Below are positions 29,895 to 56,986 of a stretch of DNA of 64,000 nucleotides, piece after piece. Source of the DNA: Bacteroidota bacterium (GTDB taxonomy: Bacteria > Bacteroidota > Ignavibacteria > Ignavibacteriales > Ignavibacteriaceae); assembly GCA_021824145.1 (NCBI GenBank), contig JAKALM010000001.1, forward strand, positions 124,001 to 188,000, read 5' to 3'. Numbering within the stretch: the stretch's first letter is position 1; each line of letters starts with the position of its first letter. The notes under the pieces are model-generated. The model did not search any database. It was not told the origin of the DNA and worked only from the letters and a program-made list of their open reading frames with translations. Made by a program: the position numbers and the translations under genes.

Positions 29895-31208
29895 ATGTCG
29901 TTATCTGAAAAAATATTTCAAGCTGGTGTAGTTGGCGCGGGCGGCGCAGGTTTTCCAACTCATGTTAAAGCTTCATCAAAACCAGAAATTATTTTGGCAA
30001 ACGGTGCCGAGTGCGAACCTTTAATTCATAAAGATTATGAATTGATGATTAACTTCCCAGAAAAGATTGTAAGAGGAATGGAGTTGGTTCTTGAATCTAC
30101 TTCCGCTAAAAAAGGTTTTTTCGGGATCAAATCTAAAAACGCAAAGGCGATTGAAGAAATAAAAAAACATTTTTCAAATGGGAAAATTGAAATTGCAGAA
30201 CTGGGAGATTTTTATCCTTCCGGCGATGAATATGAGCTTGTTTATTCGGCAACAAAAAGATTAATTCCTCCAGCCGGAATTCCACTTGATGTTGGATGTG
30301 TTGTAAATAATGTTGAAACTTTTTTTAACGTTGCAAATTCAGAGGAAGGGAAACCAGTTACAGAAAAATTTGTTTGCGTTACTGGCGCCGTTAAAAATCC
30401 ATCATCATTTTTTGCGCCGATTGGAATTTCTTTCCGCGAGTTAATTACTCATGCCGGCGGAACAACAACAAAAGATTTTGGAATTTTTGTAGGCGGCGTT
30501 ATGATGGGAAATTTAACTTTTGATCTTGATGAAGTTGTTACAAAAACAACAACCGGATTAATCATTCTTCCTAAAGATCATTATCTCATCAAAAGAAAAA
30601 ATCAGCCGGAACAAAATTGGCATCGTATCGGAAAATCGGCTTGCGATCAATGCAGCTACTGTACTGAATTTTGTCCCCGATATTTACTTGGATATGAAGT
30701 TCAGCCGCACAAAGTAATGCGCTCACTGGGTTTTTCAAAAACCGGTTCTGGCGTCTGGAACCAAATGGCTGAGCTGTGCTGCAGCTGCGGTTTGTGCACA
30801 CTTTATTCATGTCCGGAAGATCTTTACCCGAAAGAAGCCTGCGATAAAGCAAAAAGAGAAATGAAAAGTGAAGGAATAAAATTTACCCAGACCAAACCGG
30901 TAAAAGTTCATCCAATAAAAGAAGGAAGAAGAGTTCCGCTTAAACAATTGATAAATAAATTGAGACTCCAAGATTATAATGTTCACACTCCTTTTAATAA
31001 AAATACACCAGAGACATCTAGCGTGAAAATTTTATTGAAACAGCATATTGGTGAGGCGGCAGTTCCTAAAGTAAAAATTGGCGATAAAGTTAAAAAGAAT
31101 GATATGATTGGCGAAGTATCAAATGGTAAGCTTGGTGCAAATATTCATGCCTCAATCAGTGGAACAGTTTCTCAAGTTACAAATGAGTACATAAGAATTA
31201 ATAAATAG
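29895..31208 (+). CDS. pduS: PduS-like iron-sulfur flavoprotein (RnfC/SLBB type)
   Basis: 437 residues, matching PduS, the corrin reductase of propanediol microcompartments, and related to RnfC and NuoF. N-terminal nucleotide-binding segment GVVGAGGAGFPTHVK and ANGAECEPLIHKDYELM; SLBB-type domain near GISFRELITHAGG; two [4Fe-4S] motifs CDQCSYCTEFCPR and CCSCGLCTLYSCP; C-terminal barrel-sandwich segment PKVKIGDKVKKNDMIGEV. It should pass electrons from NADH via FMN to its Fe-S clusters. The PduT-like shell protein follows after 9 bases, as in pdu operons, but no other pdu-type gene is present. Confidence 0.88.
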   Translation: MSLSEKIFQAGVVGAGGAGFPTHVKASSKPEIILANGAECEPLIHKDYELMINFPEKIVRGMELVLESTSAKKGFFGIKSKNAKAIEEIKKHFSNGKIEIAELGDFYPSGDEYELVYSATKRLIPPAGIPLDVGCVVNNVETFFNVANSEEGKPVTEKFVCVTGAVKNPSSFFAPIGISFRELITHAGGTTTKDFGIFVGGVMMGNLTFDLDEVVTKTTTGLIILPKDHYLIKRKNQPEQNWHRIGKSACDQCSYCTEFCPRYLLGYEVQPHKVMRSLGFSKTGSGVWNQMAELCCSCGLCTLYSCPEDLYPKEACDKAKREMKSEGIKFTQTKPVKVHPIKEGRRVPLKQLINKLRLQDYNVHTPFNKNTPETSSVKILLKQHIGEAAVPKVKIGDKVKKNDMIGEVSNGKLGANIHASISGTVSQVTNEYIRINK

Positions 31209-31217
31209 GAATTTAAA

Positions 31218-31772
31218 ATGATCGAAATGAATTCAATCGGTTTAATTGAAATGGGAAGCATTGCATCCGGCATGCAGGCGGCGGATATAATGCTTAAAAC
31301 TTCTGAAGTAGAATTAATTTTATCCCGTACAATTTGTTCCGGAAAATATATGACGTTGATCGGCGGGGAAGTGGCCGCAGTAAATTCGGCAGTTAATCAC
31401 GCAGTTGAAACCATTGGATTCGGAGTGATTGATTATTTTGTAATTCCAAATGTTCACCGCTCAATTTTTCCAGCAATTTCTGGGCATAATAATGTTGAAA
31501 TGCTTGAAGCGCTTGGAATTGTTGAATCTTATTCCGTTGCTTCATTAATTGAAGGCGCCGATGCAGCAGTTAAAGCAGCTAATGTAAAATTAATTGAAGT
31601 TCGTTTGGCGATGGCTCTTGGTGGTAAAGCATTTTTTACAGTAACTGGAGAAGTTGCTGCCGTTTCAAGCGCTGTGGATGCTGGTGCGAAGGTTGTCGGC
31701 GATAAAGGTTTACTTGTAAACAAAGTTGTAATTGCTAATCCGCGGCAGGAACTTTTATCCGAAATGATTTAA
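31218..31772 (+). CDS. pduT: PduT-like tandem BMC-domain shell protein
   Basis: 184 residues with two BMC domains in tandem (about 5-95 and 97-180), the BMC-T architecture that forms pseudohexameric trimers in bacterial microcompartment facets. Each domain opens with the family signature (IGLIEMGSIASGMQAADIML; LGIVESYSVASLIEGADAAV). C40 in SRTICSGKY corresponds to the PduT cysteine (Cys38 in the described protein) that ligates an [4Fe-4S] cluster in the trimer pore. An AGGA site overlapping the pduS stop supports the start. It overlaps the convergent downstream gene by 38 bases. It presumably relays electrons with the PduS-like protein. Confidence 0.9.
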   Translation: MIEMNSIGLIEMGSIASGMQAADIMLKTSEVELILSRTICSGKYMTLIGGEVAAVNSAVNHAVETIGFGVIDYFVIPNVHRSIFPAISGHNNVEMLEALGIVESYSVASLIEGADAAVKAANVKLIEVRLAMALGGKAFFTVTGEVAAVSSAVDAGAKVVGDKGLLVNKVVIANPRQELLSEMI

Positions 31773-45687: not shown

Positions 45688-48531
45688 ATGAGTACATTAA
45701 TAGAGCTGTTAAACTATGGCCAAAGTTATTGGTTAGATAATTTAACAAGAGGAAAAATTAAAAACGGCGAATTGAAAAAACGAGTAGTTAATCAAGGACT
45801 TCGAGGTATCACATCCAATCCCAGCATTTTTAATAAAGCAATTACTGGAAGCACTGATTACGACAGACAAATAAAACAATTAGTCGAACAGAAAAAAGGT
45901 GTTCACGAAATTTATGAAGCATTAACAATAAAAGATGTTCAGGATGCATGCGATATTTTAAGGCCGGTTTATGATTCATCTGAAGGAGTCGATGGATTTA
46001 TCAGCATTGAAGTATCTCCTTATTTGGCGCGTGATACACAAGGAACAATTATTGAGGCAAGACGGTTGTTTAAAGAAGTTAACAGGCCGAATTGTTACAT
46101 AAAAATTCCAGGCACACCAGAAGGAATTCCTGCAATCGAGCAAGTTCTTTACGAAGGAATAAATGTAAACGTTACTTTGCTGTTTTCAGTTCAAAGTTAT
46201 GAAGCAGTAGCTTACGCTTATCTTAATGCACTTGAACGTCGAACTGCAGAGAATAAGCCAATCGATAAACTTCGATCTGTTGCAAGCTTTTTCTTAAGTA
46301 GAATTGATGTGTTGACTGACCAGCTTTTAGGAAATTTAATCATCCCCGGAAATTTCAATGAAACCAAATTACAGCCAGAAAATTATTTTGGAAAAGCTGC
46401 GGTTGCAAGTGCAAAGATTGCTTACCAAAGTTTTAAAAAAATATTTTCAGGTGAAAGATGGGAAAAGTTATTATTAAGCGGGGCAAAAGTTCAACGTCCG
46501 CTTTGGGCAAGCACCAGCACTAAAGATCCGCTGTATGATGATATTAAATATGTTGAACCGTTAATTGGTCCGGAAACTGTGAATACTTTGCCTGATGAAA
46601 CAATTGATGCATTTGCTGATCATGGTAAAATTGAAGCAAACACAATTGAAAAAGATGTGGATGAATCTTACAAAATAATTGAGGATTTAAAAAAACTTGG
46701 GATCGATATTGATTTTGTAACAGCTCAATTATTAAATGAAGCCATTCAGAAATTTATTGAGCCTTATGACAACTTAATGAAAAATATTTCACAGAAACGA
46801 GAAGTTTTTCTTGGTGAAAGAATTGGAAAACTAAAAATTAGTTTTGGTAAATCTAAATCAGAAGTTTCAGCTGCGATGAAATCACTAAACGAAAAACAGT
46901 TTGCCAGAAGATTGTTTGCGAAAGATCCTCATCTTTGGTCTGATGATCCGGAACAGATTAAAGAAATTAGTATTCGGCTTGGATGGCTTGACAGCATGGA
47001 ATATTTTCTCGGAAAATTCGATGAAGTAAATCAGGTTGTAAAGGACGTAAAAGCGGCAAAGTACAAATATGCTGTTTTGCTTGGAATGGGCGGCAGCAGC
47101 TTGTGTCCAGAAGTTTCAAGAGAAACGTTTGGATCGAAGCCTGGTTTTCTTGAACTGCATGTTTTGGATAATACAGATCCTGCTGCGGTTAAAGATGTTG
47201 AATCGAAAATTGATTTAAGAAAAACATTATTTATTGTTTCAAGCAAATCCGGGACAACTTTGGAGACTTCATGCTTCCAACATTACTTTTATGAAGAAAC
47301 AAAAAAGTTAGTTGGAGAATTTGCCGGCGAACATTTTGTTGCAATTACCGATCCAGGAACTTCTTTGATGAAAGAAGCGCAGCAAAATAATTATCGGCAT
47401 GTTTTTGAAAATCCGATTGAATTTGGTGGACGATATTCTGCTTTATCTTTTTTTGGATTAGTACCTATGGCATTGATTGGGATTGACATCAAAAAAATTC
47501 TTGATAACGCTCATCAAATGCAATTGAGCTGCGGGCCATTTGTTCCTGCAGAAGTAAATCCCGGTGCTAGCCTTGGAATATTTTTAGGAATTAATTACAA
47601 GCAAGGAAGAGATAAAATTTCATTTGTTATGTCCAAGTCGATTAGTTCGTTTGGATTGTGGGTAGAACAATTGATCGCAGAAAGCACTGGCAAAATGGGC
47701 AAAGGGCTTCTTCCCGTTGAAAGTAAAAAAATTGGTAATCCTGAAAATTATTCAAACGATAGAGTGTTTGTTCACATTTATACTTCATTTGATGATTCGA
47801 AAGCTGACGAGAAAAAACTTGCTGCTCTTGAAAAAGCAGGACATCCGGTGGTTCGAATTGAAATTAAAGATAAGTTTGCTCTTGGTGCAGAATATTTACG
47901 TTGGGAAATTGCAACCGCAACGGCTGGTGCAGTAATTGGGATTAACGCATTTGATCAACCTAACGTTGCGGAAAGTAAAAAAAATTCGGAAGAACTTTTA
48001 AAAGAATGGAAATCAAAAGGAAACTTTAGCGAAGGAGAATCAATTGTTTCAAAAGATGGAATTTCTATTTTCTGTAATGAATCAGCTAAATGGCTATTTG
48101 AGGGCCATCGAAAATCTGTAAAAGAATTTTTGAATTCATATTTTAAACTAGCAAAAACTGCGGATTATATTTCTTTTTTGGCTTACTTTTTACAAACGCC
48201 AACAAGAAATAAGCTGCTTCAAGATTTAAGAATGAATTTGAGAAATAAATTTAAAGTAGCAACTACACTTGGCTACGGGCCTCGTTATTTACACTCAACA
48301 GGACAGCTTCATAAAGGCGGTGCAAATAATGGAGTATTTATATTGTTTACTTCCGATACAAATGAAGAACTAAGTATTCCCGGAAAAGAATTTGGATTTG
48401 CAACTTTGCAAAGAGCACAAGCTCTTGGCGATTTCGGATCTTTAAATTCACATAATAGACGTGTTGTTAGAGTTCATCTTGGTAATGATGTTGAAAGCGG
48501 ATTGAAAAAAATTTTAGAATATTTGAAGTAA
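45688..48531 (+). CDS. tal-pgi: Bifunctional transaldolase / glucose-6-phosphate isomerase fusion
   Basis: 947 residues. Residues 1-365 are transaldolase: SYWLDNLTRGKI, GLRGITSNPSIFNKAI and the Schiff-base lysine K139 in NCYIKIPGT. Residues about 390-945 are phosphoglucose isomerase: LGMGGSSLCPEV, SSKSGTTLE, and the C-terminal HNRRVVRVHLG region. The fusion joins the non-oxidative pentose phosphate pathway to glycolysis. An AAGGAG site precedes the start. It heads the cluster zwf, UPF0182, HAD, gnd, zwf2. Tal-Pgi fusions are known in several unrelated bacteria, so the fusion is not novel in itself. Confidence 0.95.
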   Translation: MSTLIELLNYGQSYWLDNLTRGKIKNGELKKRVVNQGLRGITSNPSIFNKAITGSTDYDRQIKQLVEQKKGVHEIYEALTIKDVQDACDILRPVYDSSEGVDGFISIEVSPYLARDTQGTIIEARRLFKEVNRPNCYIKIPGTPEGIPAIEQVLYEGINVNVTLLFSVQSYEAVAYAYLNALERRTAENKPIDKLRSVASFFLSRIDVLTDQLLGNLIIPGNFNETKLQPENYFGKAAVASAKIAYQSFKKIFSGERWEKLLLSGAKVQRPLWASTSTKDPLYDDIKYVEPLIGPETVNTLPDETIDAFADHGKIEANTIEKDVDESYKIIEDLKKLGIDIDFVTAQLLNEAIQKFIEPYDNLMKNISQKREVFLGERIGKLKISFGKSKSEVSAAMKSLNEKQFARRLFAKDPHLWSDDPEQIKEISIRLGWLDSMEYFLGKFDEVNQVVKDVKAAKYKYAVLLGMGGSSLCPEVSRETFGSKPGFLELHVLDNTDPAAVKDVESKIDLRKTLFIVSSKSGTTLETSCFQHYFYEETKKLVGEFAGEHFVAITDPGTSLMKEAQQNNYRHVFENPIEFGGRYSALSFFGLVPMALIGIDIKKILDNAHQMQLSCGPFVPAEVNPGASLGIFLGINYKQGRDKISFVMSKSISSFGLWVEQLIAESTGKMGKGLLPVESKKIGNPENYSNDRVFVHIYTSFDDSKADEKKLAALEKAGHPVVRIEIKDKFALGAEYLRWEIATATAGAVIGINAFDQPNVAESKKNSEELLKEWKSKGNFSEGESIVSKDGISIFCNESAKWLFEGHRKSVKEFLNSYFKLAKTADYISFLAYFLQTPTRNKLLQDLRMNLRNKFKVATTLGYGPRYLHSTGQLHKGGANNGVFILFTSDTNEELSIPGKEFGFATLQRAQALGDFGSLNSHNRRVVRVHLGNDVESGLKKILEYLK

Positions 48532-48561
48532 AACTATTTTTCAAGCAAGGAGATGATGAAT

Positions 48562-50088
48562 ATGAGTGAAGAATTCGTTGAAGCAGCAAATTCTGGAATG
48601 TCGAGAGCAGTTCCACCTGAACCTTGTATTGTAGTAATTTTTGGAGTTACAGGAGATTTAACTCATCGAGAATTAATCCCATCTCTTTATGCACTTGGCT
48701 GTAAAAAATTAATGCCAACCCAGTTTGCAATAATCGGATTTGCAAGGCGTGATTGGGATGATAATTATTTTCGTAATGAAATGAAGACTGGAATGAAAAA
48801 AGTTAGCGAATGCGGCGATGTTGAATGGGAACAATTTTCTAAAAGGATGTTTTATGTTAAAGGTGATTTTAACGAAGATGCTTCAGGATCGTATTTAAAA
48901 CTTAGGGAGAAAATAAAAGCAATTCAAAACGAATTTAATATTGATGATAATATTCTTTTTCACCTTGCAACGCCACCCGAAGATTACAGTACAATTATTG
49001 AAAGACTTGGAGAGGTTTCGTTATCAAAAAGTGAAACTGGGTGGCGACGAGTAATTATTGAAAAACCTTTTGGCCGCGATGAAAACTCAGCTCGAAAACT
49101 TGATGAAGATATTCAAAAAGTTTTTTCAGAAGATCAAATCTTTAGGGTTGATCATTATTTAGGAAAAGAAACAGTACAAAATATGCTGGTGTTTCGTTTC
49201 GCTAATCCCGGTTTTGAACCGATTTGGAACAGAAATTATATTGAGAATGTTCAGATTACTGTTGCTGAAAAATTGGGAATCGGTACACGCGGTAATTTCT
49301 ATGAAACGACAGGAATATTAAGAGATATGGTTCAAAATCATTTGCTTCAGCTTTTGTGTATTACTGCAATTGAACCGCCGGTAAATTATGATGCTTCTTT
49401 GCGAAGTGAAACCGTTAAAGTTTTAAATTCAGTTTGCAAAATAGATGTTGAAAATGAATGTATACTTGGCCAATATGATAAAGGATTAATGAACGGAATA
49501 GAAGTTCCAGCATATCGTGATGAAAAAAATGTTACTAAGGATTCGAACACGCCAACATATGCAGCATTTAAAATTATGATTGACAATTGGCGCTGGGCTG
49601 GAGTTCCTTTCTTTTTACGAACCGGTAAAAGATTAAAAAGTAAATTAACTGAAGTAACAATTCAATTTAAGCCGACACCACATTTTATGTTTCCAACTCA
49701 CAATAGGAGCGAGCAGCACAAGAATATTCTTACTTTTCAGTTACAACCAAATGAAGGTATTGTTTATACTTTTATGGCAAAACAACCCGGCGCTGAACTT
49801 CATTTAAAACCTGTTAATTTAAATTTTAGATACGATACTGCGTTTAATATTTCAGAGCCGCCAAGCGCTTACCAATGGCTTTTGTTTGATGCTATGAAAG
49901 GAGACCAAACGTTGTTTCCTCGCGGTGATTGGATTTATAAAGCATGGTCAATCATTGATCCAATTATTAAGAAATGGGAAAGTGAGCCTTGGATAAAATT
50001 ACCAAATTATCCGTCCGGCTCTTGGGGGCCAGAGGCAGCCGATAAATTAATAAATAAAGTAGGTTGTAATTGGAGTATAAAAAATTAA
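48562..50088 (+). CDS. zwf: Glucose-6-phosphate dehydrogenase (copy 1)
   Basis: 508 residues from the ATG at 48562, nine bases after AAGGAG; ATGs at 48553 and 48556 are too close to that site. Oxidises glucose 6-phosphate to 6-phosphogluconolactone, forming NADPH. Dinucleotide loop [15 protein letters not shown]; active-site [13 protein letters not shown] with the catalytic His; IEKPFGRD; lower-domain RTGKRLKSK and LLFDAMKGD. It is 31 bases downstream of tal-pgi. A second zwf at 55457 is clearly a paralogue with similar motif order but different sequence. Confidence 0.96.
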
Positions 50089-50361
50089 AAATGAATTTTT
50101 AATTGATAAAATAAAATCGGAACAATTAAATTAATTTAATACAATTATGAAATTGAGCGCAAAAAACAATTAAGTATAAAATCGTTTAACAGTCCAACCA
50201 AATCTTCTTTACTCAAAGAAATCTATAAATAAAAAATAAGTGAGTGAATTAAGTTGATTACTTTAGTAAATTGTTAGCAGCAATTTCTGATTACATTCTT
50301 TAACTGCTGCAAAACTGAAAACAAATTAATGTTGACAAAAATTTTTTAAAGGAATAATTAG

Positions 50362-53154
50362 ATGTATACTTTGCTTTTAATTGTATTACTTGCCTTTGCC
50401 GTCTATTTAATTATGCTTGGTTCAAGGAAGAATCAAAAAAGTAAAATTTATATTGGATTTTTGGTCGCGGTTATTACAATATTATTTTTTTGGTTCATGG
50501 GTTTTTGGGGTGAAGTGCTTTGGTTTGAAAATCTTGGATATGGAAAACGATTTTGGACATTTATTTATTCAAATGGTGAAATTGCAATAGGCAGTGCAAT
50601 TTTTAGTTATATACTTGTTTATTTGTTAATGCTGCCAATTTCCAAAAAACACAAAATAATTCATGCAGCGGCAAAATTAATAGCTGTTATTATTGGCGGC
50701 TCATGGGGAATTTCTAATTGGGATGTGGTTCTGAAATTTTGGCATCAAGTTCCAGATGGAATAATCGATCCAATTTTCAACAAAGATGTGAGTTTTTATC
50801 TTTTCACGTTACCTTTTCTAGATAATTTTTATGAGCTTTTACTTCTTATCAGCTTGTTAGCATTAATTGCATCTTTCATTTCTTCATTCATCCGCTTTAG
50901 GGATAATAATATTGTTTTATATTTTCCTGATGAAGTTGAAGTGAGTATCGATAAATATTATTTTCCAATTTATTTAAGCAGTTCAATCTTTATTTTTATA
51001 CTTGCATTCGGCAGATTTTTAGATAGATATCATTTAATGTATTCAACAACTGGTGTTGTTTCTGGTCCAAGTTGGGTTGATGTAAATATTTATCTGCCAG
51101 CATATGTAATTGTAATTGTTTTTATGATTTTGATTGGACTTGGAATAATAATTCCATCTTTAAGAAAGAGATTCCAAAGTTTTTTATTTAAAAGATTTAG
51201 AATTAATCCAAATCGTTCTCACTTTTTGGTTTTAATTGGCTCGGGTATTTCAATTATTGTTATTTGGTTTTTGGCATTAACTGTAGTTCCAGGATTGTTT
51301 GAGTGGCTAATGGTTCAACCGAATGAAATTACTTTTGAACGGCAGTACATTTCAAATAATATAAAATTTACGAGATACGGCTTTGGTCTTGATAAAGTTA
51401 AAGAAAAAGAATACCCGATGACTGGAGACTTTACGCCGGACGTTGTTAATAACAATCCAAATATTTTTCAGAATATACGGCTTTGGGATTGGCATGCTCT
51501 AGACGCTGTGTATAAACAGTTTCAGGCTATTCGTCTTTATTATGAATTTTCTGATGTTGATGTTGATCGCTACAAAATAGATGGGAAATATAAACAGGTA
51601 ATGGTTTCAGGGCGAGAAATTAATATCAACAATCTTCCAGAACAAAGCCAAACTTTTGTTAATAAACGTTTTCAATATACACATGGATACGGATTAACAA
51701 TGTCTTTAGTAAATGAATTTACTCAACAAGGATTGCCGCATCTTTTAATAAAAGATATACCTCCAGTTAGTGAGTTTCCATCACTTACAGTTAATCAACC
51801 GCAAATATATTATGGAGAATTGACGAACTCTTATGTAGTTGTAAATTCAAAACAAAAAGAATTTGATTATCCAAGCGGAGAAAATAATGTTTATACAAGA
51901 TATGCTGGCAAAGGTGGGGTTCGTATTTCCAATTTCTGGAGAAAATTTTTATTCGGCTGGAAGTTTGACGGAACAAGTTTCTTATTTTCAGATTATCCGA
52001 CAGATCAAAGTCGTATAATGTTTCACCGCCAAATTGAAGAGCGGGTTAAACTGCTTGCACCGTTTCTTCAGTTTGATCAAGATCCTTATATCGTTCTTGC
52101 AAATGGAAAGCTTTATTGGATGATTGACGCTTACACAACCTCGGAATATTTTCCATACAGCCAACCGCTGCCTTCGCATAATGATATAAATTATATCCGG
52201 AATTCAGTTAAAGCAGTTGTAAACGCGTACGATGGATCGGTTAATTTTTATGTAATGGATGACACTGATCCAATAATTAAAACGTGGAGTAAAATTTTCC
52301 CGGATTTATTTAAAACGAAAAATGAAATGCCAAAAGATTTGTTAGCGCATATTAGATATCCAATTGATCTTCTTCAGGTGCAAGGTTCCATTTACGAAAA
52401 ATATCATATGACAGATCCGACTGTATTTTATAATCAAGAAGATCTTTGGGTTAGAGCAACAGAAAAATATTATAGTAATGTTCAGCAAGTACAGCCTTAT
52501 TATATAATGTGGCAGCTGCCTGGATCAAATAAACAACAATTTGTTCTCATGCTTCCTTTCACTCCTAAAAATCGGCAAGTTTTAATAGGATGGATTGCAG
52601 GCATGTGCGATCCGGATAATTACGGCGAGTTAATTGCATATCAATTTCCCAAAAACGAAACCGTGTTAGGTCCGCAGCAAGTTGAAACAAAGATTGATCA
52701 AGACAGCTATCTTTCCGGTCAATTAACTTTATGGGATCAGCGGGGCTCAAATGTAATAAGAGGGAATGTGTTAGCAATACCGGTAAATAATACTCTGTTT
52801 TATGTTGAGCCAATCTATCTTCAAGCAGAAACAGCTGCTTATCCTGAACTTCAGCTTGTAGTGGTTATGCACGGAAATAATATGAGTTATGCAAAATCGT
52901 TTGACCAAGCACTAGATGGATTATTTTCAAAAACTACAAATGCATTATCTTTACAACAAAATCAGGTTACCCAATCAGTTCCAAATGTAAAAAGTAATCT
53001 TCAAGATCAAATAAAAATTGCTAACGATGCCTTCAATAATTATCTGCAATTTATTGGTGATAAGAAATTTTCTGATGCTGCGAAAGAACTTGAAAAGCTT
53101 CAACAAGCACTTCAAAATATGCAAAACGAACAAAGCTCTTCAATTAAAAAATAA
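50362..53154 (+). CDS. UPF0182-family large membrane protein
   Basis: 930 residues, matching UPF0182 (COG1615). About seven transmembrane helices lie in the first 330 residues (the first at 3-20, then 30-48, a third near 75-93, further pairs up to FLVLIGSGISIIVIWFLALTVVPG), followed by a large extracytoplasmic domain with NIRLWDWHALDAVYKQFQAIRLYYEFSDVDVDRY, a conserved UPF0182 segment, and a C-terminal helical tail (ELEKLQQALQNMQNE). Function is unknown across the family. It interrupts the pentose phosphate genes, which is unusual, and has a strong terminator downstream. Confidence 0.92.
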   Translation: MYTLLLIVLLAFAVYLIMLGSRKNQKSKIYIGFLVAVITILFFWFMGFWGEVLWFENLGYGKRFWTFIYSNGEIAIGSAIFSYILVYLLMLPISKKHKIIHAAAKLIAVIIGGSWGISNWDVVLKFWHQVPDGIIDPIFNKDVSFYLFTLPFLDNFYELLLLISLLALIASFISSFIRFRDNNIVLYFPDEVEVSIDKYYFPIYLSSSIFIFILAFGRFLDRYHLMYSTTGVVSGPSWVDVNIYLPAYVIVIVFMILIGLGIIIPSLRKRFQSFLFKRFRINPNRSHFLVLIGSGISIIVIWFLALTVVPGLFEWLMVQPNEITFERQYISNNIKFTRYGFGLDKVKEKEYPMTGDFTPDVVNNNPNIFQNIRLWDWHALDAVYKQFQAIRLYYEFSDVDVDRYKIDGKYKQVMVSGREININNLPEQSQTFVNKRFQYTHGYGLTMSLVNEFTQQGLPHLLIKDIPPVSEFPSLTVNQPQIYYGELTNSYVVVNSKQKEFDYPSGENNVYTRYAGKGGVRISNFWRKFLFGWKFDGTSFLFSDYPTDQSRIMFHRQIEERVKLLAPFLQFDQDPYIVLANGKLYWMIDAYTTSEYFPYSQPLPSHNDINYIRNSVKAVVNAYDGSVNFYVMDDTDPIIKTWSKIFPDLFKTKNEMPKDLLAHIRYPIDLLQVQGSIYEKYHMTDPTVFYNQEDLWVRATEKYYSNVQQVQPYYIMWQLPGSNKQQFVLMLPFTPKNRQVLIGWIAGMCDPDNYGELIAYQFPKNETVLGPQQVETKIDQDSYLSGQLTLWDQRGSNVIRGNVLAIPVNNTLFYVEPIYLQAETAAYPELQLVVVMHGNNMSYAKSFDQALDGLFSKTTNALSLQQNQVTQSVPNVKSNLQDQIKIANDAFNNYLQFIGDKKFSDAAKELEKLQQALQNMQNEQSSSIKK

Positions 53155-53168
53155 TTTTTAACAATTTA

Positions 53169-53212
53169 ATGCCGGATATATTCATTTTGTGATGTATCCG
53201 GCATAATTTAAT
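53169..53212 (+). terminator. Intrinsic terminator of the UPF0182 gene
   Basis: ATGCCGGATA (53169-53178) pairs with TATCCGGCAT (53195-53204), 16-base loop, then AATTTAAT. It begins 14 bases after the stop. Confidence 0.85.
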
Positions 53213-53386
53213 TGATAAAATTTTAGATTAACATAATTGCTTGATCGCCATTATTGATTTCAAGACAAATAAAATATTTGTTAACTAAAATTTTTTAGTT
53301 TTTATTTTTTCAAAATTATTTATTGCGGATAAATAAATTTTCTATTTAAATACTTTTTTCAACATTAAACTATTTCACTAAAAATT

Positions 53387-54010
53387 ATGCATGCTGGAAA
53401 AATTACTACTTTATTTTTGGACATCGGTGGTGTTTTGCTTACTAACGGCTGTTACCGTCAAGCAAGATTAAACGCAATCAAATCGTTCAATCTGGATGCC
53501 GAAGAGATAAATGAGCGCCACCATCTAACATTTGATACTTACGAAGTTGGGAAAATTAGTTTAAAAGAATATTTAACTCGCGTAATATTTTATGAGAAGA
53601 GAAAATTTTCATATGATGATTTTACTTCTTTTATGTTTTCGCAATCAATGCAATTGCCGCATATGTTAGAACACATCCAAGAGTTAAAAAATAAATATAA
53701 ACTAAAAATTACCGCAGTAAGCAACGAAGGGCGTGAACTTACAGAGTATCGAATCAAGGAATTTAAATTATATGAAATATTTGATGCATTTGTAGCATCC
53801 AGCTTTGTGCATTTTAGAAAACCAGATGTAGATATTTATAAAATTGCTTTGGATGTTTCTCAAGTTAAACCAGAGAATGTACTTTATTTAGATGATAGAC
53901 ATATGTTTGTTGAAGTAGCAGAATCAATTGGAATAAATGGAATTCATCATATCGATTTCATCAAAACAAAAAATGAACTTAGTAAATACGGATTTAGTCT
54001 AAACGTATAA
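53387..54010 (+). CDS. HAD-superfamily hydrolase (subfamily IA)
   Basis: 207 residues. Nucleophile motif FLDIGGVLL, with the first Asp conserved and the second position Gly, as in YihX-type members. Motif II TAVSNEGRELT, motif III K in HFRKPDVDIY and motif IV YLDDRHMFVEVA are all present. Likely a small-molecule phosphatase acting on sugar phosphates, in keeping with its place between zwf and gnd, but the substrate is unknown. It is 21 bases upstream of gnd. Confidence 0.9.
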   Translation: MHAGKITTLFLDIGGVLLTNGCYRQARLNAIKSFNLDAEEINERHHLTFDTYEVGKISLKEYLTRVIFYEKRKFSYDDFTSFMFSQSMQLPHMLEHIQELKNKYKLKITAVSNEGRELTEYRIKEFKLYEIFDAFVASSFVHFRKPDVDIYKIALDVSQVKPENVLYLDDRHMFVEVAESIGINGIHHIDFIKTKNELSKYGFSLNV

Positions 54011-54031
54011 TCAAAAGTTTGGAGATTAAAA

Positions 54032-55447
54032 ATGAATTATTCAGAATGCGATATTGGAATGGTTGGGCTCGGAGTAATGGGCCGAAACTTAGTTTTAAAT
54101 TTTGGCGATCATGGTTTTTCAATTGTTGGCTTTGATAAAGATAAATCAAAGGTTGAAGAGCTAAATAAAGAAGCCGGAACAAGAAAAGTTTTTGGAACAA
54201 GTTCACTTGCTGAGTTTATAAAATCTTTAAAAAAGCCAAAAGCAGTAATGATGCTTGTTCCAGCTGGAGCTCCGGTAGATTCTGTAATTGAGGATGTTCT
54301 GCCATATTTAGAGCAGGGAGATTTGATAATTGATGGCGGTAACTCTCATTTTACCGACACTAACAAACGATTCAAAGAATTGTCTGACAAAGGAATTCAT
54401 TTCCTAGGTGTTGGGATATCTGGCGGCGAAAGCGGCGCAAGATTTGGCCCAAGTATGATGCCCGGCGGACCGGAGAAAGCTTATGAGCGAGTTAAATCAA
54501 TCTTTGAAGCTGCAGCCGCTAAATTCAATAACGAAAATTGTGTTATTTATTTGGGTCCAGGATCGGCAGGGCATTATGTTAAAATGGTTCACAACGGAAT
54601 TGAATATGGATTGATGCAGATAATTTCTGAAGCTTATGATTTGATGAAACGAGGAATAGGATTAAACAACCAACAGATTCAAGAAATTTTTAGTAGATGG
54701 AATAGAGGTAAACTTCAATCATATTTAATTGAAATTACGGCAGATATTTTTAGTAAGAAAGACCAAGATTCCGATTATCAATTAATTGATAAAATATTAG
54801 ACGAAGCAAAACAAAAGGGAACAGGTAAATGGACTTCAGAAGAAGCGATGGAGATGCAGGTTCCTTTACCAACAATTGATGCTGCAGTTTCGATGCGAGA
54901 TATGTCATCATTTAAATTAGAACGTGAACAATCATCAAAAATTTTATATGGGCCAGATCAGCGAATTGAAACTGACTATGAACCATTTGTTAAGCAGTTA
55001 GAGGATGCAGTGTATTTTGCAATGATTGCTGCGTATTCTCAAGGTATGACTATGCTAAAAGTTGCTTCTAAAGAATATAATTATAATTTGAATTTGAAAA
55101 ATGTTGCTAAAATTTGGCGCGGCGGATGTATTATTCGTGCAAGTTTACTTGAAATTATTAGCAATGCTTATGAAAAAAATCCTAATCTTCCAAATCTTTT
55201 TATCGACGATGTATTATCAAAGGAAATCTTAAATTCGCAGGACGAAATAAGGGCAATAATAAAATCGGCTGTTGAAAGCGGAATACCAGTTCCAGGGCTT
55301 ATGGCATCACTTGCATATTTCGATTCTTACAGAAGTGAATGGCTTCCGGCAAATTTAGTGCAAGCTCAAAGAGATTATTTTGGCGCGCACACTTATGAGA
55401 GGGTTGATGAGAAAGGAACTTTTCACACACAATGGAATCATGTTTAA
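54032..55447 (+). CDS. gnd: 6-phosphogluconate dehydrogenase, decarboxylating
   Basis: 471 residues, full length. Oxidises and decarboxylates 6-phosphogluconate to ribulose 5-phosphate with NADP+. N-terminal GMVGLGVMGRNLVLN; substrate segments DGGNSHFTDT, GVGISGGESGARFGPSMMPGG and the active-site lysine in HYVKMVHNGIEYG; C-terminal AQRDYFGAHTYERVDEKGTFHTQW. Its stop codon overlaps the AAGGAGGT site of the second zwf, so the two are translationally coupled. No gntK or pgl gene is nearby. Confidence 0.97.
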   Translation: MNYSECDIGMVGLGVMGRNLVLNFGDHGFSIVGFDKDKSKVEELNKEAGTRKVFGTSSLAEFIKSLKKPKAVMMLVPAGAPVDSVIEDVLPYLEQGDLIIDGGNSHFTDTNKRFKELSDKGIHFLGVGISGGESGARFGPSMMPGGPEKAYERVKSIFEAAAAKFNNENCVIYLGPGSAGHYVKMVHNGIEYGLMQIISEAYDLMKRGIGLNNQQIQEIFSRWNRGKLQSYLIEITADIFSKKDQDSDYQLIDKILDEAKQKGTGKWTSEEAMEMQVPLPTIDAAVSMRDMSSFKLEREQSSKILYGPDQRIETDYEPFVKQLEDAVYFAMIAAYSQGMTMLKVASKEYNYNLNLKNVAKIWRGGCIIRASLLEIISNAYEKNPNLPNLFIDDVLSKEILNSQDEIRAIIKSAVESGIPVPGLMASLAYFDSYRSEWLPANLVQAQRDYFGAHTYERVDEKGTFHTQWNHV

Positions 55448-55456
55448 GGAGGTAAT

Positions 55457-56986
55457 GTGCAGTCTGCTAGAAAACCTGATGCAACAATTATAATAATTTT
55501 TGGGGCTGGTGGCGATTTAACTTGGAGAAAAATAACCCCAGCTTTTTATAATTTATTTTTAGATGGATGGCTGCCAGATAAATTTGCAGTTATCGGATTA
55601 GATATTAAGGAAATGTCGGACGATCAATATAGAGAGCGTCTGCATGATGGTATAGATCAATTTTCAAGATCAGGAAAATCCAAACAAGAAGATTGGGAAA
55701 AATTTGCACAGTTGATTAATTATCGAAAGGCAGATTTTACAAATTCCAAATCTTATGAAGATCTTTCCAAGCAAATTTTAGAAATTGAAAAGACATGGGG
55801 AGAAAAATCTAATCGGATTTTTTATATGGCAATTCCTCCCGCATTTATTGAACCAATTGCAGATCAGCTTGGGAAATCAGACTTAGCAGAAGATAAAGAT
55901 AGAGCAAGAATTGTTGTAGAAAAACCTTTTGGCCGTGATTTAACAAGTGCAAGAAATTTAAATAAAATACTTTGCAATATTTTTAATGAATGTCAAATTT
56001 ATCGAATTGACCATTATCTCGGCAAAGAAACTGTTCAAAATATGATTGCGTTTAGATTTGCGAATGCACTATTCGAACCAATCTGGAACCGAAATTACAT
56101 AGATCATGTTCAAATTACAGTTGCGGAACAAGTTGGTGTAGAGCATCGCGGAGGTTATTATGAGAATGCAGGCGCATTGCGAGATATGATCCAAAATCAT
56201 CTTTTGCAATTGCTTTGTCTTGTTGCAATGGAACCACCGGTCTCTTTTAATGCTGATGAAGTGCGGAACAAAAAAGTTGACGTTCTTCGTGCAATAAGAA
56301 AATATAAAAGCGATGAAGTGAATTCGCATGCTGTAAGAGGACAGTACGATAAAGGTTGGATTGAAGGGAAAAAAGTTATTTCTTATCGTGAAGAGCCTGG
56401 TGTAAATAATAATTCTGAGACAGAAACTTTTGCAGCGATAAAATTTTTTATTGATAATTGGAGATGGCATGATGTTCCTTTTTATCTTCGCAGCGGCAAA
56501 AGGATGGCGGAAAGAATTTCGGTTATAACAATTCAATTTAAACCTGTTCCACATAGTGCGTTTCCTGCCGAATCAATTGAAAATTGGCATCCGAACAGAT
56601 TAATATTAAATATTCAACCTGCAAGAGGAATCAAACTTCGTTTCCAAGCAAAGAAACCAGGGCTAAAAATGATTTTGAATCCTGTTGAAATGGATTTCAA
56701 TTATGATCATATATATTCTACAGATCCGCCTGAAGCCTATGAAACTTTGATTTTAGATGTTATGCTTGGAGATGCAACTTTGTTTATGCGCGGAGATCAA
56801 GTTGAAGCTGCATGGGAAATTATAATGCCAATTTTAGATAAATGGCAAATAGCTTCATCAGCAGATTTCCCTAACTATGTTTCCGGCACTTGGGGACCGG
56901 AAGAAGCCGAAGCCTTAATTGCAAAAGATGGGCACAATTGGATTATGCTTCAAGCAAAATCTGTAGAAGGCTCCCAAATGAAATAA
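55457..56986 (+). CDS. Glucose-6-phosphate dehydrogenase (copy 2)
   Basis: 509 residues starting at a GTG codon (55457), behind a perfect AAGGAGGT at 55446-55453 that overlaps the gnd stop; the ATG at 55455 is out of frame. Same reaction as copy 1. Dinucleotide loop IIIFGAGGDLTWRKI, active-site [37 protein letters not shown] and LILDVMLGD are all present. It differs from copy 1 throughout its length, so the duplication is old. The paralogues may differ in cofactor or regulation. Confidence 0.95.
   Translation: MQSARKPDATIIIIFGAGGDLTWRKITPAFYNLFLDGWLPDKFAVIGLDIKEMSDDQYRERLHDGIDQFSRSGKSKQEDWEKFAQLINYRKADFTNSKSYEDLSKQILEIEKTWGEKSNRIFYMAIPPAFIEPIADQLGKSDLAEDKDRARIVVEKPFGRDLTSARNLNKILCNIFNECQIYRIDHYLGKETVQNMIAFRFANALFEPIWNRNYIDHVQITVAEQVGVEHRGGYYENAGALRDMIQNHLLQLLCLVAMEPPVSFNADEVRNKKVDVLRAIRKYKSDEVNSHAVRGQYDKGWIEGKKVISYREEPGVNNNSETETFAAIKFFIDNWRWHDVPFYLRSGKRMAERISVITIQFKPVPHSAFPAESIENWHPNRLILNIQPARGIKLRFQAKKPGLKMILNPVEMDFNYDHIYSTDPPEAYETLILDVMLGDATLFMRGDQVEAAWEIIMPILDKWQIASSADFPNYVSGTWGPEEAEALIAKDGHNWIMLQAKSVEGSQMK

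What the first reader, a model, noticed from the sequence alone, without database searches (positions are those of the whole stretch)
29895..31772. Orphan PduS/PduT pair with intact Fe-S pore cysteine, outside any microcompartment operon
A PduS-like flavo/iron-sulfur protein and a PduT-like tandem-BMC shell protein are adjacent (9 bases apart), as in propanediol microcompartments. Nothing else of the pathway (signature enzyme, encapsulation peptides, hexameric BMC-H, pentameric BMC-P) is in the window. PduT keeps the cysteine (C40, SRTICSGKY) that is known to hold a [4Fe-4S] cluster in the trimer pore, and PduS keeps two [4Fe-4S] motifs, so the pair looks functional as an electron conduit. In this setting it could either serve a microcompartment encoded elsewhere (satellite locus) or have been re-used as a stand-alone redox complex.
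Basis: partly seen in the sequence, partly recalled or inferred. Interest (0 to 1): 0.75.

Follow-up and report, generated by a model that had tools for sequence, protein, structure and literature searches.

The report
Piece of a scattered bacterial organelle
The two neighbouring genes are not orphans: they encode the electron-handling part of a protein-shelled organelle whose other parts are scattered around the same chromosome, and two of those parts carry apparent address tags and together should break down the sugar of DNA, which gives a testable function to an organelle type that had none.

Summary
PduS (29895-31208) and PduT (31218-31772) lie 9 bases apart; the pore cysteine C40 and all eight PduS cluster cysteines are invariant in relatives.

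'Orphan' is wrong. The same genome (3.48 Mb, 95% complete) holds two BMC-H and three BMC-P genes at three other places among housekeeping genes. This is the published 'FRAG' microcompartment type of Ignavibacteria, whose function was unknown.

Far from any shell gene lie an acylating aldehyde dehydrogenase with a C-terminal targeting-like helix and a deoxyribose-phosphate aldolase (DERA) with a ~65-residue N-terminal extension. Across 197 genomes of the class the DERA extension tracks this dehydrogenase 65/3/0/67, and it was lost together with the shell several times independently. In other phyla the same parts sit in one compact sugar-phosphate (SPU) locus. DeoB, which makes DERA's substrate, adjoins the BMC-P pair in 26 of 30 loci.

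Best reading: a dispersed deoxyribose-5-phosphate metabolosome in which PduS oxidises lumenal NADH and PduT's Fe-S pore exports the electrons. The compartment assignment is well supported; the electron role is inferred. About one third of such genomes lack PduT, so the conduit is optional. A stand-alone redox complex is not supported. New variant of a known kind.

The parts
29895..31208 (+). pduS-like gene (437 aa): FMN/NADH domain, SLBB, dicluster 4Fe-4S domain, RnfC barrel
   Evidence: Pfam domains; 30 of the 32 aligned homologues other than window copies come from PduT or BMC loci; always next to PduT where both are held
29925..29957 (+). glycine-rich nucleotide/FMN motif of PduS (GVVGAGGAGFP, residues 11-21)
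   Evidence: G11, G14, G16, G17, F20, P21 invariant in 32 sequences
30642..30674 (+). first 4Fe-4S cysteine motif of PduS (C250-C260, CDQCSYCTEFC)
   Evidence: C250, C253, C256, C260 invariant in 32 sequences
30777..30812 (+). second 4Fe-4S cysteine motif of PduS (C295-C306)
   Evidence: C295, C298, C301, C306 invariant in 32 sequences
31218..31772 (+). pduT-like gene (184 aa): tandem BMC-domain (BMC-T) shell protein
   Evidence: PF00936 twice; solved BMC-T relatives 3nwg, 3pac, PduT 3n79
31335..31337 (+). codon of the pore cysteine C40 of PduT (SRTICSGKY)
   Evidence: 37 of 37 homologues keep it; in PduT of other species this cysteine binds a 4Fe-4S cluster (PMC6325248)

Best explanation
PduS and PduT are the redox module of one complete but scattered metabolosome of the FRAG kind, and that metabolosome degrades deoxyribose-5-phosphate. 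Its shell is built from two BMC-H proteins (contig C14), three BMC-P proteins (a pair on C2 beside deoB, one on C29 beside dprA) and PduT (this window). [quoted passage not shown] The acylating aldehyde dehydrogenase (C27, 460 kb from this window) with a C-terminal targeting-like helix turns acetaldehyde, CoA and NAD+ into acetyl-CoA and NADH. DeoB supplies deoxyribose-5-phosphate from nucleosides. PduS, docked on PduT, oxidises the NADH through FMN and two 4Fe-4S clusters, and the 4Fe-4S cluster in the PduT pore passes the electrons to a cytosolic acceptor, so lumenal NAD+ is regenerated without an alcohol dehydrogenase. Shown here by sequence: the parts, their dispersal, the co-occurrence, the compact counterparts and the conserved residues. 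Inferred: encapsulation, substrate, direction of electron flow, and acetyl-CoA leaving for a cytosolic phosphotransacetylase.
For: Shell set complete but dispersed in this genome: BMC-H pair at C14:91046-91555, PduT here, BMC-P pair at C2:10348-10959, BMC-P at C29:12080. AldDH of 535 aa with C-terminal FGSGIKEEEIQKIMKEF, conserved as G(S/T)GISE(D/E)EIxKIIxEF in nearly all of 29 relatives, nucleophile C250 invariant, closest solved relatives a chain that I know as Listeria EutE (3k9d) and an acetylating acetaldehyde dehydrogenase (5j78). DERA of 284 aa, of which solved DERAs match only residues from about 47-67 on. Over 197 genomes of the class, N-extended DERA against this AldDH counts 65 / 3 / 0 / 67 (both, extension only, AldDH only with plain DERA, neither); the discordant genomes are 68-79% complete or have a DERA cut by a contig end. 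All 67 AldDH genomes have BMC-P. Plain DERAs of shell-less genomes nest inside the extended clade, so the extension was lost repeatedly; G192 and G170 keep remnants of it. Compact loci elsewhere unite the parts: L317 (Bacillota) has AldDH 55%, BMC-H, PduL, PduT 45%, BMC-H, BMC-P, PduS, RpiB, two BMC-P and DERA within 10 kb; L174 (same class, G085) has RpiB-DERA-BMC-P-AldDH-BMC-H. deoB lies within 1.5 kb of the BMC-P pair in 26 of 30 loci. In G011 DERA lies about 6 kb from PduT. PduS binding to PduT, NADH-dependent reduction of its FMN and clusters, and export of electrons as a proposal are published for the PDU proteins (PMC2982820, PMC6325248).
Against: PduT is missing from 21 of 67 genomes that have the AldDH, several of them near-complete, so the electron conduit is not essential to the compartment. 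No PduL is found and the plain Pta (C31, 327 aa) has no targeting extension, so CoA recycling inside the shell is unexplained. Helical-moment tests of the putative targeting helices are mixed (significant for Kryptonia and f20 DERA, not for this genome's). No expression, localisation or enzymatic data exist. Related genomes are not independent, so the Fisher value of 2e-35 overstates certainty. PduT scores below NCBIfam's PduT cut-off.
Confidence: 0.78

Rival explanations
1. PduS and PduT have been re-used as a stand-alone redox complex (for example an NADH:acceptor oxidoreductase tethered to a BMC-T trimer) that has nothing to do with a compartment.
For: No shell or pathway gene lies within the window or near it; PduS alone is an NADH-oxidising flavoprotein in other species (PMC2982820).
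Against: All 50 genomes with a full-length PduT also have BMC-P; none of the 124 genomes without BMC-P has one. In G011, L317, L326, L175 and L177 the pair lies in or near loci with shell or DERA genes.
Confidence: 0.04
2. The scattered shell encloses a class II aldolase pathway (fucose/rhamnose, PVM-like) rather than DERA. Melioribacter roseus has been listed with a PVM-like locus (PMC4207490), and this genome has a class II aldolase about 5 kb from one BMC-P gene.
For: Class II aldolase at C29 (L012 6580-7236; PF00596 6e-47) on the same contig as the third BMC-P gene.
Against: That aldolase has no visible terminal extension; its gene is not a recurrent neighbour of the BMC-P3 gene in the seven relatives examined, where dprA and a phosphoglucomutase-like gene recur instead. 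Genomes with other compact BMC loci (G119, G065, G174, G096) lack both the FRAG-type AldDH and the DERA extension.
Confidence: 0.06
3. The compartment is a DERA/SPU-like one, but PduS-PduT works inward or as a corrin/flavin reductase remnant: electrons enter the lumen to reduce something there, or the pair is a relic of a PDU ancestor without present function.
For: PduS reduces cobalamin in PDU (PMC2982820); Axen et al. suggest that PduS in SPU loci may be a remnant (PMC4207490). Many DERA extensions carry 3-4 cysteines that could accept electrons.
Against: All cluster cysteines and C40 are invariant across deep divergence, which argues against a relic. No lumenal electron acceptor is known. 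This genome's DERA keeps only two of the cysteines.
Confidence: 0.2

Closest known systems
FRAG bacterial microcompartments (Sutter et al. 2021, PMC8217296)
   Same: Shell genes at several separate places, BMC-P triplet, reported for Ignavibacteriae, mostly remote from enzymes. This case has four shell places, three BMC-P, and housekeeping neighbours.
   Different: Published FRAG types are described as lacking an obvious signature enzyme; here DERA with a targeting-like extension is proposed as that enzyme, and the AldDH is placed. The published shell-protein HMM classes could not be run.
SPU (sugar phosphate utilisation) metabolosomes (Axen 2014 PMC4207490; Sutter 2021)
   Same: Same parts list: DeoC-type aldolase, RpiB, AldDH, BMC-H, BMC-P triplet, and in some PduS/PduT. 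L317 matches the dispersed set almost gene for gene.
   Different: Not in one locus; PduL not found in this genome; RpiB with an N-terminal domain shown in relatives only, not in this genome.
HO microcompartment (Haliangium ochraceum)
   Same: Sutter et al. report a pfam01791 aldolase at a separate place in some HO genomes, some copies with an EP-like N-terminal extension: the same logic of a remote, tagged DERA.
   Different: HO has a main locus with its own AldDH; here there is no main locus.
PduS-PduT of the PDU metabolosome
   Same: Adjacent genes, pore cysteine in a C-S/P-G-K-Y/F motif, two 4Fe-4S motifs, FMN domain.
   Different: No propanediol enzymes or PduL co-occur; PduT lies below the NCBIfam PduT cut-off; the pair forms a small unit of its own, with hemH upstream here and other neighbours elsewhere.

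Membership tests
FRAG microcompartment | shell genes in several distant genomic places | tested here: met
   C14, C2, C29 and C27
FRAG microcompartment | BMC-P triplet | tested here: met
   three BMC-P genes here; three in most of the 73 BMC-P-positive genomes
FRAG microcompartment | shell genes remote from known enzymes of a BMC pathway | tested here: met
   housekeeping neighbours; deoB beside the BMC-P pair is a partial exception
FRAG microcompartment | shell-protein HMM class of the 2021 catalog | not testable with these tools
   those HMMs are not in the libraries on hand
SPU metabolosome | DeoC-type aldolase (pfam01791) as candidate cargo | tested here: met
   DERA with N-terminal extension; extension tracks shell and AldDH
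SPU metabolosome | AldDH with targeting helix | tested here: met
   encapsulation itself not tested
SPU metabolosome | RpiB-type isomerase (pfam02502) belonging to the compartment | tested here: inconclusive
   this genome has two RpiB matches, only the plain 147-aa one was placed; 14 relatives have an RpiB with an N-terminal domain whose other profile hits lie almost all in BMC loci
SPU metabolosome | aldolase, isomerase and AldDH in one locus with shell genes | tested here: not met
   all at separate places in this genome; met in relatives L174 and L317
PDU metabolosome | PduL phosphotransacylase | tested here: not met
   no PF06130 match in the genome
PDU metabolosome | B12-dependent diol dehydratase | not tested
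   no genome search was left; none is in the window or in the fetched loci that I read
PduS | Complex1_51K + SLBB + Fer4_17 + RnfC_N, two tetracysteine motifs | tested here: met
PduT | tandem BMC domains with pore cysteine C-(P/S/A)-G-(K/R/S)-(Y/F) | tested here: met
PduT | score above NCBIfam TIGR02526 cut-off | tested here: not met
   109.7 against 250.3 bits

The most novel reading that the evidence does not exclude
In most shell-bearing Ignavibacteria-like lineages the FRAG organelle is a vertically kept deoxyribose-5-phosphate metabolosome with its genes dissolved into housekeeping neighbourhoods, lost repeatedly as a unit although its parts are unlinked; and its DERA carries, beside the targeting helix, a cysteine motif (C-x4/5-C-x2-C-x2-C in its fullest form) shared with SPU loci of other phyla, which may bind a metal or Fe-S cluster and couple the aldolase to the PduS-PduT redox relay.
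Probability: 0.3. Interest if true: 0.8.

Novelty: new variant of a known kind. Interest (0 to 1): 0.66.

Why it matters
The 2021 catalog lists FRAG compartments as enigmatic, without an obvious signature enzyme, and expects their function to come from environmental correlation. The comparison here names a specific enzyme set and substrate for the FRAG type of this class. That makes the question testable in one growth experiment and one co-expression experiment. It also shows that a multi-protein organelle can persist with its genes scattered over at least six places, held together by co-occurrence and targeting sequences rather than by an operon. For methods, it warns that locus-based BMC surveys miss cargo encoded far away.

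Tried and rejected
PduL as the phosphotransacylase: no PF06130 match in the genome. Class I FBA-type aldolase at C31:400-1170 (the best DeoC-family hit): a 349-aa protein of the fructose-bisphosphate aldolase kind by my reading, no extension, not DERA. The other two full aldehyde dehydrogenases (C16 and C26): they look like ordinary semialdehyde dehydrogenases without targeting ends, by reading. Pta: the C31 copy is plain, and the C35 match lies in a 766-aa frame that I take for a malic enzyme-Pta fusion. Amphipathicity as a statistic for the targeting helices: mixed, so the case rests on conservation and co-occurrence, not on helix moments. BLASTP between the RpiB N-terminal domain and the stand-alone SPU protein in L317: no similarity; only a profile search found it (3.5e-6). 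AlphaFold model of an extended DERA (L298 with A1): barrel confident, helix 3-20 at pLDDT about 60, cysteine stretch below 50, so it gives no evidence for a folded metal site. One search call failed on coordinates and was repeated without that entry.

Full report
Observation. The two ORFs are at the stated coordinates, 9 bases apart, on the + strand. PduS has the four Pfam domains known for the family and PduT is a tandem BMC protein whose nearest solved relatives are BMC-T trimers, PduT 3n79 among them. C40 of PduT is kept in 37 of 37 homologues and the eight cluster cysteines of PduS in 32 of 32. Pfam scans of 30 further window ORFs found housekeeping genes and no other BMC part.

The rest of the shell. 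A whole-genome search with the BMC and BMC-P families found two BMC-H genes on contig C14 between yqgF/ruvX and a ybbR-like gene, two BMC-P genes on C2 between deoB and a sigma-70 gene, and one BMC-P gene on C29 next to dprA. Two BMC-H, one BMC-T and three BMC-P make up the three shell protein types that shells are built from. The pair in the window is therefore a member of a dispersed set. Sutter et al. (PMC8217296) describe this as FRAG: shell genes at up to six places, a BMC-P triplet, found in Ignavibacteriae, function unknown.

The survey. In 197 genomes of the class, BMC-domain genes occur in 77 and BMC-P in 73, in most of them three copies. All 50 genomes with a full-length PduT have BMC-P; none of the 124 genomes without BMC-P has PduT. 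PduS lies beside PduT in all 30 PduT loci (some PduS reading frames cut by the locus end; in G011 and G141 one extra ORF lies between them). This excludes, as far as sequence can, a stand-alone complex. Twenty-one of 67 genomes with the FRAG-type AldDH lack PduT, so the redox module is optional.

Candidate cargo. Aldehyde dehydrogenase and DeoC family searches of the genome led to two unusual proteins far from any shell gene. The first is a 535-aa acylating aldehyde dehydrogenase at C27:615861-617465 that ends in FGSGIKEEEIQKIMKEFGKS; the ending is conserved in nearly all of 29 relatives. Its closest solved relatives are 3k9d, which I know as Listeria EutE, and an acetylating acetaldehyde dehydrogenase, 5j78. 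The second is a 284-aa DERA at C35:76659-77510, immediately after folD. Solved DERAs match it only from about residue 47-67 on, so some 50-65 residues are extra. Such terminal helices joined by a linker are how encapsulation peptides are described (PMC8217296).

Co-occurrence. Among genomes with a readable DERA, the extension and this AldDH occur together in 65, extension without AldDH in 3, AldDH with plain DERA in 0, and neither in 67. The three exceptions are genomes 68-79% complete. Two AldDH genomes had no readable extension: in one the DERA is cut by a contig end, the other is 74% complete and shows no DERA. Genomes with other, compact BMC loci (G119, G065, G174, G096) do not have the extension, so it does not simply follow any shell. 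The counts are of related genomes and the Fisher value (2e-35) should not be read as independent evidence. The tree of the DERA core domain alone helps here: plain DERAs of shell-less genomes (G165, G173, G192), and of G119, which has only the other BMC type, fall inside the extended clade; the extended label needs at least four changes on well-supported branches. G192 keeps half of the extension and G170 keeps a helix without the cysteines. Loss of shell and of extension went together several times.

Compact counterparts. A scan of named genomes with DERA gave loci that contain the same parts in one place. L317 (a Bacillota MAG) reads AldDH, BMC-H, PduL, PduT, a small protein, BMC-H, BMC-P, PduS, RpiB, BMC-P, BMC-P, DERA in about 10 kb (PduL confirmed). 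L174, from the same class as the window (G085), reads RpiB, DERA, BMC-P, AldDH, BMC-H. These match the published SPU type, for which DNA-derived deoxyribose was proposed (PMC4207490, PMC8217296). The dispersed set here is that list minus PduL.

Genomic links to the pathway. deoB, the phosphopentomutase that makes deoxyribose-5-phosphate, is found within 1.5 kb of the BMC-P pair in 26 of 30 loci and in this genome lies upstream on the same strand with an 83-base gap. Whether deoB and the sigma gene are neighbours also without BMC-P was not tested. In many genomes of family f2 the DERA lies 8-15 kb from the BMC-H pair, and in G011 DERA and PduT are about 6 kb apart.

RpiB. This genome has two RpiB matches, of which only the plain one (C27:114013) was listed with a place. 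In 14 relatives a second form has a ~65-residue N-terminal domain. A profile of that domain, run over all ORFs held, hits next only ORFs in loci with BMC genes (L177, L318, L174, L329, L179, L317, L175, L178), down to 0.005; further down there is one unrelated chance hit and one more BMC locus. The domain therefore looks BMC-associated. Its presence in this genome was not verified.

Mechanism. DERA in the lumen would release acetaldehyde, a volatile and toxic aldehyde, which the AldDH converts to acetyl-CoA with formation of NADH. PduS of Citrobacter reduces its FMN and an Fe-S cluster with NADH and binds PduT (PMC2982820), and export of electrons through the PduT cluster has been proposed (PMC2982820, PMC6325248). 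The same route would regenerate NAD+ here. This last step is inference; nothing in sequence tells the direction of flow. Genomes without PduT must use another NADH sink.

A further feature. The DERA extension carries cysteines: C-x5-C-x2-C-x2-C in Kryptonia, similar in SPU loci of Armatimonadota, Bacillota and Auribacterota, and only two in this genome's family. An AlphaFold model leaves that stretch disordered. A metal or Fe-S site is possible but unproven.

Verdict. The pair is the redox part of a FRAG compartment; the evidence assigns that compartment to deoxyribose-phosphate degradation. In the papers that could be searched here, no earlier statement of this assignment was found; subscription literature and catalog supplements were not readable. 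The nearest precedent is the remark that some HO genomes have a remote DeoC with an EP-like extension.

Noticed in passing
L005 15320-16084 (C14) and relatives L020-L048: The second BMC-H protein ends, after a long charged linker, in a conserved ~45-residue tail (LNVHELRHLARSFENFPIKGRQISRANRDELIEHF) with no Pfam match; it reminds me of Rho_N/SAP-type nucleic-acid binding modules and of the tail of EutK.
   Followed up: partly
A1 columns 86-101 (L298, L304, L306, L315, L316, L329 and others): A cysteine motif next to the targeting helix of DERA, shared by FRAG and SPU loci of several phyla and reduced to two cysteines in the window's family.
   Followed up: partly
L191 1764-988 (G192) and L193 854-1675 (G170): Shell-less genomes whose DERA keeps a degraded remnant of the extension, a natural loss series.
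   Followed up: yes
L234-L240, L244-L246, L248: RpiB with an extra N-terminal domain, in families f1/f2 placed between a manC-like gene and pyrK-pyrD-folC.
   Followed up: partly
L212 12493-12849 (G011): A small ORF lies between pduS and pduT; by reading it looks like a 23S rRNA intervening-sequence (four-helix) protein.
   Followed up: no
L012 12047-12334 and L334, L337-L339: The single BMC-P gene is linked to dprA and, in relatives, to a phosphoglucomutase/phosphomannomutase-family gene.
   Followed up: partly
window 45688-56986: A pentose-phosphate cluster: transaldolase-phosphoglucose isomerase fusion, two glucose-6-phosphate dehydrogenases and 6-phosphogluconate dehydrogenase, about 14 kb from the pair.
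   Followed up: no
L088 1480-2043 / L265 9977-10840 (G093, Melioribacter sp. MnB_16): The extended DERA gene has an in-frame stop in this assembly.
   Followed up: no
G130 and G165: Genomes with weak BMC-domain matches but no BMC-P, possibly remnants of a lost shell.
   Followed up: no
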